DNA of 64,000 bases, taken from assembly GCA_035530615.1 (NCBI GenBank), contig DATKUL010000003.1:372001-436000 (forward strand). The letters run 5' to 3'. The notes beneath the pieces were generated by a model that was not told the DNA's origin, ran no database searches, and was given only the letters and a program-made list of their open reading frames with translations. The stretch is from Candidatus Paceibacterota bacterium. Its GTDB lineage: Bacteria; Actinomycetota; Actinomycetes; Nanopelagicales; Nanopelagicaceae. The translations under genes were made by a program, and so were the position numbers. Shown here piece by piece: positions 4,886 through 46,616 of this stretch; position 1 is the stretch's first letter; each line of letters begins with the position of its first letter.

Positions 4886-5255
4886 GGGGGTGAACGGTCT
4901 CGACTTTGGATGTTGAGGCAGGGGAAGCGGGCCGAGGAAGCCAGGATGATCTCGTTAACCAATACCCTGCGCAAAAATATAAAAGCCGATAACAATCGCG
5001 CTGACTTCGCTCGCGCTGCCTAAGCGCGCTCCCTAGTCCGTTAGCCTGAGTGAGCCTTCGATTCAGGGTCTAACGTCGTCAGAAGGCTTTTCATGGTGTT
5101 GGGGTTACAGACAACATCGGAGAACAGTTCTGTAACTGAGTCCGTCGAATACTTGTGTGTAAGAGATTCGGGACTGAGAAAGCGATAAGCGCACTACGCC
5201 CGTAGAAGCCCTGTTTTAGTACCGAAGGACCCGGGTTCGATTCCCGGCACCTCCA
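4886..5255 (+). ncRNA. ssrA: Transfer-messenger RNA (tmRNA)
   Basis: The RNA opens with GGGGGUG followed by the conserved AACGGUCUCGACUUUGG and ends with a T-arm (GGGUUCGAUUCCC) and CACCUCC, which closes a 7-bp acceptor stem with the 5' end (one G-U). The discriminator is A at 5255; CCA is not encoded. The tag reading frame at 4985-5023 reads ADNNRADFARAA followed by UAA. Actinobacterial tags known to me end in ALAA, so Arg in place of Leu is unusual. CGCGC (5012-5016) pairs with GCGCG (5024-5028) around the stop codon, and this change lengthens that helix. smpB lies just upstream. An antisense reading frame across the 3' part is spurious. Confidence 0.95.
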
Positions 5256-5497
5256 CTTTGACCATGCATATGCCCTTCTGGCACGCCGCAAAGTTATTTC
5301 TCTCAGGATCAAGGACCATATTCTTCGCTGGCGCCTGCGAAAACTCTGTGGCTCTTCACAATCGTGTAATGAATCCAATTTCCATAGCGTTCTATTAAGT
5401 AGGGCAGGGGAGGAGTAGTTGGAGAAGGCTTGGATCAATCTGTTGATTCGCAGGTTGGTGTGGGTCTTAGCAACTACTTTTCTCTTGTTCCAAATTT
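5256..5497. other. Intergenic stretch without recognised gene
   Basis: Between tmRNA and the first structured element no credible reading frame, RNA gene or terminator is seen. The only longer frame is antisense and runs into the tmRNA T-arm. Confidence 0.5.
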
Positions 5498-5559
5498 AGG
5501 GTTGGGCTCTCTAGGTAGAGGTGGATTCCCCAATGAAATCCATTGCGGAGCCCAACCCT
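5498..5559. repeat. Structured element, copy 1 (stem within stem)
   Basis: AGGGTTGGGCTC (5498-5509) pairs perfectly with GAGCCCAACCCT (5548-5559). The 38-base interior holds a second stem, TGGATT (5522-5527) with AATCCA (5537-5542), closed by a G-T pair (5521/5543). A second copy with the same outer arms lies at 6145-6208, beyond the small gene at 5708. The 12-base outer arms are identical between copies; the inner stem differs at one pair, changed on both sides. The element could be an RNA motif in the leader of the small gene, a paired terminator, or a mobile palindromic repeat. It is not a family I recognise. Confidence 0.75.
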
Positions 5560-5707
5560 GATTTCTTTCCAACCCTGTATTTCTTTCCATGCACCTGTCC
5601 ATAAGCCCATTTTTGGATTGCTGGCAATACCCTGAGAATTAGAGATTGCTTGTAACGACTCCCCCTTTCACTTCGTTCTACTGCATAGGACTAACGAGAG
5701 GAAAGAA

Positions 5708-6115
5708 ATGAATATCAAGACAAAGACCTTGGTGCTGGGCACCGTGGGGGCTTTTGCCCTCTCCTATGCAATTGTGGGCTCCAATGCCTTCGCTGACACG
5801 AACTCGGCGCCTGTTCCAGCCGTACCTTCGACCACGGCTACGGCTTCGGCCACTGCTTCGGCCACTGCTACACCCGCACCTTTGGTCTCTCCTATCCCAG
5901 CTCCAGCTGGTCTCACTTCCCCTTCGGCTGGAATCACTCAGGATGATGAGGGCGATGACCTAGATGATCTCATTGAAGATGGCCTCGACGTTGCCGAAGG
6001 CGAAGACGACGAAATCTCAGATGATGATTCAGATGATCAATTGATTACTGTCGACGTTAGTGGCGGTATCAATCTGAGTAGTGATACGAAAGTTGATCTG
6101 GGCGAGGACGATTAG
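5708..6115 (+). CDS. Secreted Ala/Thr/Pro-rich protein with acidic tail, function unknown
   Basis: The 135-residue product has a clear signal peptide (MNIKTKTLVLGTVGAFALSY, cleavage likely after NAFA at about residue 29). The mature part is a low-complexity Ala/Ser/Thr/Pro segment with repeated TATASA units (about 40-75) and then a strongly acidic segment rich in Asp and Glu (about 77-135). No Cys and no catalytic motif are present. A strong ribosome site, GAGGAAAG, precedes the ATG. The gene is flanked by two copies of a structured element, and the downstream copy is placed like a terminator. Acidic low-complexity exported proteins can bind cations or wall polymers, but function is not shown here. 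Confidence 0.75.
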   Translation: MNIKTKTLVLGTVGAFALSYAIVGSNAFADTNSAPVPAVPSTTATASATASATATPAPLVSPIPAPAGLTSPSAGITQDDEGDDLDDLIEDGLDVAEGEDDEISDDDSDDQLITVDVSGGINLSSDTKVDLGEDD

Positions 6116-6144
6116 TCACTCGGACTTATAGATCGTAAATAGTT

Positions 6145-6208
6145 TTAGGGTTGGGCTCTGCACGGAGGGGTGAATTTCCCTATTAATTCATCTCGAGCCC
6201 AACCCTAA
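6145..6208. repeat. Structured element, copy 2 (stem within stem)
   Basis: TTAGGGTTGGGCTC (6145-6158) pairs perfectly with GAGCCCAACCCTAA (6195-6208), 14 bp. The interior has TGAATT (6171-6176) with AATTCA (6185-6190), again closed by a G-T pair (6170/6191). Against copy 1 at 5498-5559, the third inner pair is A-T instead of G-C. It lies between convergent genes, 30 bases after the secreted-protein stop and 41 bases from the acetyltransferase stop, so it may end both transcripts. Confidence 0.75.
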
Positions 6209-6248
6209 CTTTTTGCTTTCTGTGCCGGATTAAGTTCTGGTGACATGC

Positions 6249-8406: not shown

Positions 8407-9384
8407 TTAACCCTCGATTAAGCGAGTGGGAGCGTTGTGCACCGCAGGGATAGTACCGAGCTTGCCTTTTTGGAAGTCCTCAAATGCCTGCAGAACCTCA
8501 GTTCTTGTGTTCATAACAAAAGGTCCCATCCAGGCAACTGGTTCCTTAATGGGCAATCCACCCAGAATGAATAGATCCAATTCAGGCGAGCGACTTTCCT
8601 GCATGTCGGTCGCACGCATAACGATTGAATCACCCTCACTGAAAACGGTGAGTTGACCCATCTGCACAGGTCGTCCCTCTTCTCCCGCGTAGCCATGTCC
8701 GGCAAGTGTGTAGACCAGCGCGTTGTAATCCTTGCGCCATGGCAGACGGATTTCGGCACCAGGCTGCACAGTCGCGTGCACCAAAGTTATTGGCGTGTGT
8801 GTCGAACCCGGACCCTGATGTCCATCCACCTCACCGGCGATCACGCGAATCAACGCCCCACCATCGGGGGAGGAGAGCAATGCAACGTCACTGGCACGCA
8901 GATCTTGATAGGCAGGCGGTGACCACTTCTTGGCCGCTGGCAAATTCACCCAGAGTTGGAAACCGTGGAACAGCCCGCCGCTCATCACCAAACTCTCTGG
9001 TGGAGATTCGATGTGAAGAATTCCCGCACCGGCGGTCATCCATTGAGTGTCGCCGTTGGTGATTGTTCCTCCGCCACCGTTGTTATCTTTATGGTCGAAA
9101 ATTCCATCAATAATGTAGGTAACAGTTTCGAATCCCCGGTGCGGATGCCATGGAGTTCCCTTTGGCTCACCTGGCGCATACTCAACTTCGCCCATCTGAT
9201 CCAAGTGAACGAACGGATCAAGCTGCGCCATGTCAACACCGGCAAACGCACGACGAACCGGAAAGCCCTCGCCTTCATACCCGGAAGGAGCCGTGGTAAT
9301 GCTCTTTACTCGACGGGCGCGCAGCGATGTATTCGCGCTGATGCGTGGAAGGACGGTGATGTCCTTGACTGTTACGGCTGGCAT
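8407..9384 (-). CDS. Pirin family protein
   Basis: Pirins are bicupin proteins; some are quercetinase-like dioxygenases, others redox-responsive regulators. The N-terminal cupin carries the four expected metal ligands His80 and His82 (HPHRGFETVTYIIDG), His124 and Glu126 (GAGILHIESP). The C-terminal cupin follows from about residue 190. Length, 325 residues, fits the family. AAGGGAGAG stands 4 bases before the ATG. The gene is isolated, with a gene-free repeat region upstream, so the role is not suggested by neighbours. Confidence 0.92.
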   Translation of the reverse strand: MPAVTVKDITVLPRISANTSLRARRVKSITTAPSGYEGEGFPVRRAFAGVDMAQLDPFVHLDQMGEVEYAPGEPKGTPWHPHRGFETVTYIIDGIFDHKDNNGGGGTITNGDTQWMTAGAGILHIESPPESLVMSGGLFHGFQLWVNLPAAKKWSPPAYQDLRASDVALLSSPDGGALIRVIAGEVDGHQGPGSTHTPITLVHATVQPGAEIRLPWRKDYNALVYTLAGHGYAGEEGRPVQMGQLTVFSEGDSIVMRATDMQESRSPELDLFILGGLPIKEPVAWMGPFVMNTRTEVLQAFEDFQKGKLGTIPAVHNAPTRLIEG

Positions 9385-9472
9385 TTCACTCTCCCTTGAT
9401 CCGCTGCCCCAATAGTAGTTGAAAGTTCAACTATCTGCAACCCGCTTGAGGGGTCTCGCCGCGGGTGAGCGA

Positions 9473-9526
9473 CTCGAGAAGTGCACGAGCCGACGTAATC
9501 TTTTCAGTCGGCGGTGCACTTCTGAG
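9473..9526. repeat. Long covarying hairpin, copy A
   Basis: Outer stem AGAAGTGCAC (9477-9486) with GTGCACTTCT (9514-9523), flanked by CTC/GAG (9473-9475/9524-9526). Inner stem GCCGAC (9489-9494) with GTCGGC (9507-9512), loop gtaatcttttca. An asymmetric internal loop (GA against G) separates the stems. Core and internal loop recur in copies B and C, while the outer stem sequence differs and stays paired. Confidence 0.85.
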
Positions 9527-9565
9527 GAGCGATCATCGGCATCAACCAAGGCTCGAAAGGATGCA

Positions 9566-9590
9566 TCGTCGACTGAAAAGATAACTACAC
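9566..9590 (-). repeat. Degenerate reversed half copy of the hairpin
   Basis: The stretch cgactgaaaagata matches, on the opposite strand, the loop and right inner arm of the hairpins at 9473, 9644 and 9768. The matching left arm is missing, so it cannot fold the same way. It suggests past inversion or erosion within the array. Confidence 0.5.
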
Positions 9591-9595
9591 AGTCT

Positions 9596-9618
9596 CCTCA
9601 CGCATCCTGTTCTTCGCC
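9596..9618. repeat. 23-bp direct repeat, first copy
   Basis: The 23 bases are identical to 9720-9742. In both cases the next hairpin (9644 or 9768) begins 25 bases after the repeat ends, so repeat plus hairpin form a module with a 124-base period. The 25-base linkers differ in sequence. Confidence 0.85.
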
Positions 9619-9643
9619 CCCAGGCACGGTGACAGATGAGCGA

Positions 9644-9697
9644 CTCAAGAAGGACTAAAGCCGACGTAATCTTTTCAGTCGGCGTAGTCCTTTTGAG
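9644..9697. repeat. Long covarying hairpin, copy B
   Basis: Outer stem CTCAAGAAGGACTA (9644-9657) with TAGTCCTTTTGAG (9685-9697), one bulged G. Inner stem GCCGAC (9660-9665) with GTCGGC (9678-9683), loop gtaatcttttca as in copy A. The outer stem sequence is unlike A and C yet fully paired. Confidence 0.85.
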
Positions 9698-9719
9698 GAG
9701 CGAGCAGGGTCTTCATCGC

Positions 9720-9742
9720 CCTCACGCATCCTGTTCTTCGCC
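9720..9742. repeat. 23-bp direct repeat, second copy
   Basis: Identical to 9596-9618 and placed 25 bases before hairpin C. It begins CCTCACGCATCC and ends TTCTTCGCC. Confidence 0.85.
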
Positions 9743-9767
9743 GGTTGACGTCGACTGGTGGAGCAAA

Positions 9768-9819
9768 GCAGAAGGTGCACGAGCCGACGTAGTCTTTTCA
9801 GTCGGCGGTGCACCTTTGC
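9768..9819. repeat. Long covarying hairpin, copy C, next to pntB stop
   Basis: Outer stem GCA-g-AAGGTGCAC (9768-9780) with GTGCACCTTTGC (9808-9819). Inner stem GCCGAC (9783-9788) with GTCGGC (9801-9806), loop gtagtcttttca (one base differs from A and B). It lies 26 bases past the pntB stop on the minus strand and could help end that transcript, though only a short T-run follows. Confidence 0.85.
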
Positions 9820-9845
9820 GTAGCGACCTTGCGATCGCGGGGGAG

Positions 9846-11252
9846 TTACAGGTTCTTGAGGGCGCTGACGACCTTAGTCAGCGTCTCTTTGGCATCTCCG
9901 AAGAGGAGAGTGGTCTTGGGATCGTAGAGAAGCTCGTTCTCGATACCGGCGAATCCTGGGCGCATGGAGCGCTTGAGGAAGACGACGTTTGCCGCATCGG
10001 CAACTTCGAGAATTGGCATTCCGTAGATCGGGCAACCGGGTGAGTTCTTCGCAGCCGGGTTTACGACGTCGTTGGCGCCGATGACGAGTGCAACATCGGT
10101 CTGGGCGAAGGTCGGGTTGACCTCATCCATCTCCTGAAGTTGCTCGTAAGGCACGTTGGCCTCGGCGAGAAGAACGTTCATGTGGCCAGGCATACGACCT
10201 GCAACGGCGTGAATTCCGTAGGCAACATCAATGCCCTTTGCGGTCAAGAGATCCGCAAGTTCGCGGACAGTGTGCTGTGCCTGTGCAACGGCCAGACCGA
10301 AGCCAGGAACAAAGACAACGCGACGTGCGTAGTTGAGAAGAATTGCAATATCTTCTGGAGACCCTGACTTAACCGAACGAGTCTCTGCTTCGTCGGATGC
10401 CGCTTGTGGTTTGGCCGTGAATGCGCCGAAGAGGGTCTTGAAGAGCGAACGTCCCATCGCCTCTGCCATCTTGCGAGTCAGGATCGTTCCACTTGCGCCA
10501 ACGAGTGTTCCAGCAACGATCAAGAGGGTTGTCTGTAGAACATATCCACTCGCCGCAACAGTAAGACCGGTGAATGCGTTTAAGAGTGAGATAACGATCG
10601 GCACATCCGCGCCACCAACTGGTAGAACGAAGAGAATACCGAAGAGAAGTGAGAGTCCGGCAAGCACGATGAGAGGAGTGTTTCCTCCCGAGTTGATTAC
10701 CCAGGCGCCGGCTGCAAAGACTCCAGCGACGTTTGCTGCAATGAGGAAACGTCCACCAGGGAATACGACTGGACGCGTCGTCATCAACTCTTGAAGTTTG
10801 GCGAAGGTGATGCACGATCCGGAGAATGAAACGCTACCGACGATGACTGTAAAGACGGTGGCGATAACAACTGCAGGACTCGCTTCGTCTCCAAGTTTCA
10901 AATACTCAACGATTGCGACGAGTGCCGCGGCACCACCACCAACACCGTTAAATAGCGCAACAAGTTGTGGCATCTGAGTCATCTGCACCTTACGTGCGGC
11001 AGGGACTCCGACAAGAAGGCCGATGAGGACCGCAACTAGAATCAATGGCAAGTTATGAAGCGGCAGTTTGTGATACTCAGGATCGCTTGAATTGCCAGTG
11101 AAGAAGAAGACGAGAAGCGTTGCAATCGTGGCACCGGCGGCACCAATCAAGTTACCGCGACGAGCCGTCTTTGGATGCGATAGACCCTTCAGGGCGAGAA
11201 TGAAGCAGACGGCGGCAATCAGGCCGATGAGGTCGTATAAGTTGCGGCTCAT
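9846..11252 (-). CDS. pntB: NAD(P) transhydrogenase subunit beta
   Basis: PntB is the membrane and NADP(H)-binding subunit of the proton-translocating transhydrogenase, which uses the proton gradient to drive hydride transfer from NADH to NADP+. The 468 residues comprise several membrane helices up to about residue 270 and a C-terminal NADP domain with GFGLAVAQAQHTVRELADLL, HAVAGRMPGHMNVLLAEANV, and DVALVIGANDVVNPAA. The start overlaps the pntAB stop by 4 bases, so the three pnt genes form one coupled operon. A long hairpin (9768-9819) lies just beyond the stop. Confidence 0.96.
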   Translation of the reverse strand: MSRNLYDLIGLIAAVCFILALKGLSHPKTARRGNLIGAAGATIATLLVFFFTGNSSDPEYHKLPLHNLPLILVAVLIGLLVGVPAARKVQMTQMPQLVALFNGVGGGAAALVAIVEYLKLGDEASPAVVIATVFTVIVGSVSFSGSCITFAKLQELMTTRPVVFPGGRFLIAANVAGVFAAGAWVINSGGNTPLIVLAGLSLLFGILFVLPVGGADVPIVISLLNAFTGLTVAASGYVLQTTLLIVAGTLVGASGTILTRKMAEAMGRSLFKTLFGAFTAKPQAASDEAETRSVKSGSPEDIAILLNYARRVVFVPGFGLAVAQAQHTVRELADLLTAKGIDVAYGIHAVAGRMPGHMNVLLAEANVPYEQLQEMDEVNPTFAQTDVALVIGANDVVNPAAKNSPGCPIYGMPILEVADAANVVFLKRSMRPGFAGIENELLYDPKTTLLFGDAKETLTKVVSALKNL

Positions 11253-44851: not shown

Positions 44852-44870
44852 TTGTCAGAGTTAGCCAATA

Positions 44871-46616
<1,746 letters not shown>

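What the first reader, a model, noticed from the sequence alone, without database searches (positions are those of the whole stretch)
9473..9819. Array of three long hairpins whose outer stems covary
Three hairpins (9473-9526, 9644-9697, 9768-9819) share inner stem GCCGAC/GTCGGC, a 12-base loop (gtaatcttttca, one change in C) and an asymmetric internal loop. The outer stems differ in sequence (AAGTGCAC, AAGGACTA, AAGGTGCAC) yet stay paired, each time with changes on both sides. Coordinated change means that the folded form, as RNA or single-stranded DNA, is under selection or is copied as a unit. No gene in the stretch explains it, and I do not recognise the family.
Basis: partly seen in the sequence, partly recalled or inferred. 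Interest (0 to 1): 0.7.

Follow-up and report, generated by a model that had tools for sequence, protein, structure and literature searches.

The report
Conserved-core hairpins with freely changing arms

Summary
Hairpins A (9473-9526), B (9644-9697) and C (9768-9819) are there as described. A fourth, longer-looped relative, D (9551-9614, minus strand), and a half copy share the pntB-pirin gap. They belong to a wider family. In this genome (2.16 Mb, all searched) a covariance model finds seven copies at three loci: pntB-pirin, a permease-LysE gap, and the gap before tadA. Sister species carry copies before a cold-shock gene, between panB and nadE, between dedA and hppA, after pirin and after metX. 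Hits cover 41 of 296 Nanopelagicaceae genomes, in 3 of 17 genera. The core (pyrimidine-rich 12-14-nt loop, inner stem, small purine internal loop) is copied: 98.8% identity across dispersed loci. Distal arms are about 32% identical, near chance, yet pair. 16 of 18 pairs change on both sides. Sites without the element exist; the core occurs in both orientations. Best reading: REP-like palindromic repeats, usually directly after a stop codon in place of an ordinary terminator hairpin, with arms kept paired by template switching, selection on the stem, or both. Termination, mobility and what reads the core are inferred, not shown. Not in Rfam; no REP tag; no RAYT transposase seen.

The parts
9473..9526 (+). 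Hairpin A (type-1 core GCCGAC-GTAATCTTTTCA-GTCGGC; arms AGAAGTGCAC/GTGCACTTCT)
   Evidence: found by model R2, which was built without it, E 2.9e-6
9551..9614 (-).
   Evidence: the 24-nt core is identical in nine other genomes, in genus g16
9644..9697 (+). Hairpin B (type-1 core; arms AGAAGGACTA/TAGTCCTTTT)
   Evidence: R2 E 2.3e-5
9720..9742 (-). Half copy: 5' arm of D duplicated without its core (23/23 identical to 9596-9618)
   Evidence: repeat family D2
9768..9819 (+). Hairpin C (type-1 core, loop GTAGTCTTTTCA), the first hairpin after the pntB stop; same position in sister species G013, G018 and G005
   Evidence: R2 E 4e-8
9846..11252 (-). pntB, NAD(P) transhydrogenase beta subunit; upstream neighbour (its stop is 29 nt from the arm of C)
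   Evidence: PF02233
8407..9384 (-). pirin-family gene, downstream neighbour in the same direction
   Evidence: PF02678, PF05726

Best explanation
The hairpins are copies of a lineage-restricted, REP-like palindromic repeat family of Nanopelagicaceae. Each copy has a conserved core (a pyrimidine-rich 12-14-nt loop, a 6-8-bp inner stem and a small purine internal loop) on two arms that are free in sequence but stay paired. Shown: copies lie at a few unrelated intergenic loci, duplicate locally, occur in both orientations and are missing at the same sites in sister species. Inferred: at gene ends they replace the ordinary terminator hairpin and serve as 3'-end or termination hairpins in the RNA. 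Inferred: the arms stay complementary because template switching copies one arm onto the other, probably with selection for a stable stem, and the core is conserved because it is needed for spreading or is bound by something.
For: Seven copies at three loci in the fully searched own genome. Further loci in sister species were found by models that had not seen them. Core identity is 98.8% against 31.5% for distal arms over 28 pairs of copies from five loci. Covariation: 16 of 18 pairs change on both sides, score 0.69 against at most 0.19 for slid controls. Sites without the element: before tadA, none of 19 sister loci has the core; 18 show no comparable hairpin and the closest relative G017 has a core-less one; the G000 panB-nadE gap has no palindrome where G013 and G015 carry two copies. 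Gene-end position: 5-29 nt after the stop and nearer to the stop than to the next start in 6 of 7 loci measured. At the permease, sister species have ordinary perfect hairpins with unrelated stems. The core lies in opposite orientations at the same place after pirin in different species. A-B differences are mirrored. Template switching homogenises arms and inverts spacers (PMC8794818, PMC8604942).
Against: No transposase or RAYT was seen (partial motif screen). Copy number is very low for a REP. Two loci lie between divergent genes (panB/nadE, dedA/hppA), where no terminator is expected, and one weaker hit lies inside dnaX. The consensus terminator scan finds nothing at 9300-9900. No expression data. 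The element has stayed at pntB-pirin across two genera, which fits a resident functional element as well as a mobile one.
Confidence: 0.5

Rival explanations
1. A structured RNA (3'-UTR regulator, protein-binding site or small RNA) under direct selection: the loop and the RUGA/GA-type internal loop are recognised, the arms only hold the fold, and covariation is ordinary compensatory evolution.
For: Extreme conservation of the core: 30/30 nt in species whose pirin genes are 81-93% identical, and 24/24 at about 75% identity. Conserved purine internal loop and inner-stem covariation. Stable folds.
Against: The core occurs in either orientation relative to the same gene in different species, in divergent intergenic regions and is missing in many sister species. 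Not in Rfam. No common function among the neighbouring genes.
Confidence: 0.22
2. Ordinary intrinsic terminators, multiplied at pntB-pirin by tandem duplication; the shared core is only common descent.
For: Placed just after stop codons. Arms often start with an A-run and end with a T-run. A and B share flanks (80% over 79 nt). Coreless terminator-like hairpins fill the same places in sister species.
Against: Does not explain the same 20-nt core at non-homologous loci, copies between divergent genes, or a core conserved more strongly than coding sequence. The consensus terminator scan is negative.
Confidence: 0.15
3. A DNA-level site: single-strand hairpin or cruciform bound by a recombinase or other DNA protein (attC-like or replication-related).
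For: Indifferent to orientation, folds as ssDNA on either strand, duplicated in arrays.
Against: No integron core sites GTTRRRY/RYYYAAC in the hairpins. The conserved part is the tip, not the foot as in attC. No recombinase gene recognised next to it in the window.
Confidence: 0.08

Closest known systems
REP (repetitive extragenic palindromic) sequences, GTAG and CGTC super-families, and their dimers (PMC3733652)
   Same: Short palindromes outside genes, mostly downstream of coding regions, often near each other in opposite orientation, able to fold as RNA; CGTC REPs also lack a known transposase.
   Different: REPs are 20-40 bp and recognised by a conserved unpaired terminal tag. Here the tip is conserved, the arms are unrelated between copies, there is no tag, and only seven copies exist in this genome.
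Rho-independent terminators
   Same: Position just after stop codons, long stable stem, A-run/T-run at the foot of several copies.
   Different: Conserved 12-14-nt loop and internal loop shared between unrelated loci; some copies lie between divergent genes; weak or interrupted U-tract in this window.
Inverted repeats remodelled by template-switch mutation (PMC8794818, PMC8604942)
   Same: Arms change together while pairing stays perfect; the spacer can be inverted in place.
   Different: That process explains arms and orientation, not how one 20-nt core came to lie at several unrelated loci.
Integron attC sites
   Same: Imperfect hairpins whose arms vary but stay paired, in arrays (general knowledge).
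   Different: attC conserves the foot (core sites GTTRRRY/RYYYAAC), which is absent here; this family conserves the tip.

Membership tests
REP (GTAG/CGTC-tagged) | Unpaired GTAG or CGTC motif at one end of the palindrome (PMC3733652) | tested here: not met
   Ends of the arms differ between copies; no shared end motif in alignment A6 or the arm comparison
REP (GTAG/CGTC-tagged) | Many copies per genome, stem conserved between copies | tested here: not met
   Seven copies at three loci in 2.16 Mb; distal arms 31.5% identical
REP (GTAG/CGTC-tagged) | RAYT tyrosine transposase in the genome (GTAG class) | tested here: inconclusive
   HUH-motif screen of ORFs of 80 aa or more; the candidates inspected look like other proteins, not all were inspected; no HMM search of the genome for PF01797 was made
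REP (GTAG/CGTC-tagged) | Extragenic, mostly downstream of genes | tested here: met
   Intergenic at all own-genome loci; directly after stop codons at most codirectional loci
Rho-independent terminator | GC-rich stem followed by a run of U | tested here: inconclusive
   Consensus scan negative at 9300-9900; clear T-runs in several relatives, e.g. L274, L287
Rho-independent terminator | Ends transcripts in vivo | not testable with these tools
   No RNA-seq data available
Integron attC | Core sites RYYYAAC and GTTRRRY at the foot | tested here: not met
   No GTT in hairpins A, B or C by inspection of the sequence
Known Rfam family | Match at the gathering score | tested here: not met
   None here over the window; only a sub-threshold mir-7883 match, taken as chance

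The most novel reading that the evidence does not exclude
A new kind of mobile palindrome in which only the roughly 20-30-nt core moves and the long arms are made afresh at each site, either by insertion into the loop of an existing terminator hairpin or by fold-back copying of the local flank, so that copies share a tip but no arm sequence.
Probability: 0.22. Interest if true: 0.75.

Novelty: new variant of a known kind. Interest (0 to 1): 0.47.

Why it matters
The family gives a natural test of how long hairpins arise and stay paired: conserved tips at non-homologous loci, with arms that are unrelated yet complementary, could separate copying (template switching) from selection. It also warns that covariation, usually taken as proof of a functional RNA, can come from a mutational process. 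And it is a repeat family in streamlined freshwater bacteria that are thought to carry few repeats (general knowledge, not tested here).

Tried and rejected
Rfam at gathering and E-value thresholds: nothing. Exact core patterns in viral contigs: none, so no sign of phage origin. First model R1 and the literal loop pattern suggested one locus only in this genome; this was misleading, because copies elsewhere have a variant loop (GTGCTCTTTCTTTT), seen only after reading the permease locus. CRISPR-like array: rejected, because spacing is irregular and the arms are not repeated. Integron attC: rejected, no core sites. Insertion of the core into existing terminators as the general rule: not supported at panB-nadE, where the sister site has no palindrome, but a 14-nt arm (GCAAAAAGCGCATC) shared between a coreless hairpin in G002 and a core-bearing one in G005 keeps it open. 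Kink-turn or bulged-G reading of the RUGA/GA internal loop: only by eye, not tested. Cold-shock-protein binding of the T-rich loop: considered because some copies lie before a cold-shock gene; no supporting data found.

Full report
CHECK. The three hairpins are present at the given coordinates with the features described. They fold better than every shuffle on both strands, as RNA and as DNA. The gap they occupy lies between pntB and a pirin gene that run in the same direction on the minus strand. A fourth relative, D, lies on the opposite strand at 9551-9614, and part of its 5' arm is repeated at 9720-9742. D has a 14-nt loop (TGTAGTTATCTTTT); A-C look like D with TGTGTA removed (GAC[TGTGTA]GTTATCTTTTCAGTC against GACGTAATCTTTTCAGTC, one further change).

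A WIDER FAMILY. The literal A-C core occurs nowhere else in this genome. In the same gap of sister species the same hairpins recur with other arms. The D core is identical over 24 nt in nine genomes of another genus (g16), next to pirin, sometimes twice 75 nt apart and in either orientation; reversed-pattern controls gave zero. Reading the permease-LysE gap in sister genomes showed copies with a variant loop, GTGCTCTTTCTTTT. With those added, model R2 finds seven copies at three loci in the whole own genome. A, B and C were not in R2's training set and still score E 4e-8 to 2e-5; D, the permease and the tadA copies were in it. R2 then found loci it had not seen in sister species: before a cold-shock gene (three species), between panB and nadE (two species, tandem) and between dedA and hppA. 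Model R3 finds hits in 41 of 296 genomes of the family, in 3 of 17 genera, among them new pntB-pirin hairpins with E as low as 1e-15. An exact scan of about 85,000 genomes for the D core gave ten loci; apart from one Bacillota hit without these neighbours, the records are from this lineage or carry closely similar pntB or pirin neighbours, which suggests that labels such as 'Streptomycetaceae' and 'Bifidobacterium breve' on two MAGs are wrong. Record titles name the lineage Candidatus Nanopelagicaceae.

ANATOMY. All copies fit one plan: outer arms, a 2x1 purine internal loop (GA or AA against G; RUGA against GAN in many), an inner stem of 6-8 bp and a loop of 12-14 nt rich in pyrimidines. On 21 copies, 16 of 18 pairs change on both sides and the covariation score is 0.69, against at most 0.19 when partners are slid; an earlier 17-sequence set gave 11 of 17. 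Caveat: the alignments were anchored on the core and the structure was derived from these sequences.

CORE AND ARMS EVOLVE DIFFERENTLY. Over eight copies from five loci and four species the 20-nt core is 98.8% identical, the distal arms 31.5%, while arms pair over about 8-21 bp. Among g16 species whose pirin genes are 81-93% identical the 30-nt core is unchanged in almost all copies. A and B differ inside the palindrome at 11 places, eight of them four mirrored compensated pairs in one 5-bp block; 0 of 200,000 random placements matched. In sister species G013, G015 and G018, after the permease, the outer part of the stem is wholly different and still perfectly paired. After the pirin stop codon the core lies in opposite orientation in different species. 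Arm homogenisation and spacer inversion are the two outcomes reported for template switching between inverted-repeat arms (PMC8604942), and template switching is proposed to create and maintain RNA stems (PMC8794818). Selection on pairing is not excluded, and both may act.

GAIN AND LOSS. Before tadA only this genome has the core; the closest relative has a core-less hairpin, and the other 18 loci read show no comparable hairpin, most with a short gap. The panB-nadE gap in this genome is 81 nt without a palindrome, where G013 and G015 carry two copies. So copies, arms included, come and go.

WHAT IT DOES. Six of seven codirectional loci have the first arm 5-29 nt after the stop codon and nearer to that stop than to the next start. 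Sister species without the element have ordinary hairpins at the same places. This supports a 3'-end or terminator role there, but the consensus scan finds no standard terminator in the window stretch, two loci lie between divergent genes, and nothing here measures RNA. I commit to a REP-like repeat that serves as a 3'-end hairpin, at 0.5. Steps shown: family, core and arms, dispersal, presence and absence. Steps inferred: termination, template switching, mobility mechanism, reader of the core.

KNOWN KINDS. REPs are the closest (PMC3733652): extragenic palindromes, downstream of genes, pairs in opposite orientation. Two defining features were tested and not met (terminal tag; many copies with a conserved stem), and the RAYT test is inconclusive, so it works like a REP but is not filed as one. 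attC is excluded by missing core sites; no Rfam family matches. Literature searches for this lineage found no description of such repeats, within the held library only.

Noticed in passing
window 5495-5567 and 6144-6214: A second pair of long hairpins flanking the ORF at 5708-6115. Here the outer stem (AGGGTTGGGCTC/GAGCCCAACCCT) is shared and the tips differ, the reverse of the hairpins in the finding.
   Followed up: partly
window 9416-9433: Palindrome TAGTTGAAAGTTCAACTA in front of the pirin gene, present in nearly every sister species read: a likely operator. The D loop region (TAGTTATCTTTTCA) resembles part of it.
   Followed up: no
L300 1337-1395: A model hit (E 1.8e-7) inside the dnaX coding sequence of a g16 genome, in frame in the variable linker. 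REPs inside replication genes are reported in PMC3733652.
   Followed up: partly
L162 11575-11792 (C1 end) and L167 18-123 (C3 start): Near-identical palindromic repeats TTAATTCGGCGCCGTTAATTAATAGGRG at the end of contig C1 and the start of C3: probably one array that broke the assembly.
   Followed up: no
L117, L118, L121, L125, L126, L127, L131, L132 after the permease gene: Ordinary terminator-like hairpins at one orthologous position, with long, near-perfectly paired stems that are mostly unrelated between species: fast, concerted arm turnover may be general in this genus.
   Followed up: partly
window 44864-44971; 4886-5258: TPP riboswitch and tmRNA, both above the Rfam gathering score.
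   Followed up: no
L101, L105: Public MAG contigs labelled Streptomycetaceae and Bifidobacterium breve carry pntB or pirin genes close to those of Nanopelagicaceae: the labels look wrong.
   Followed up: no
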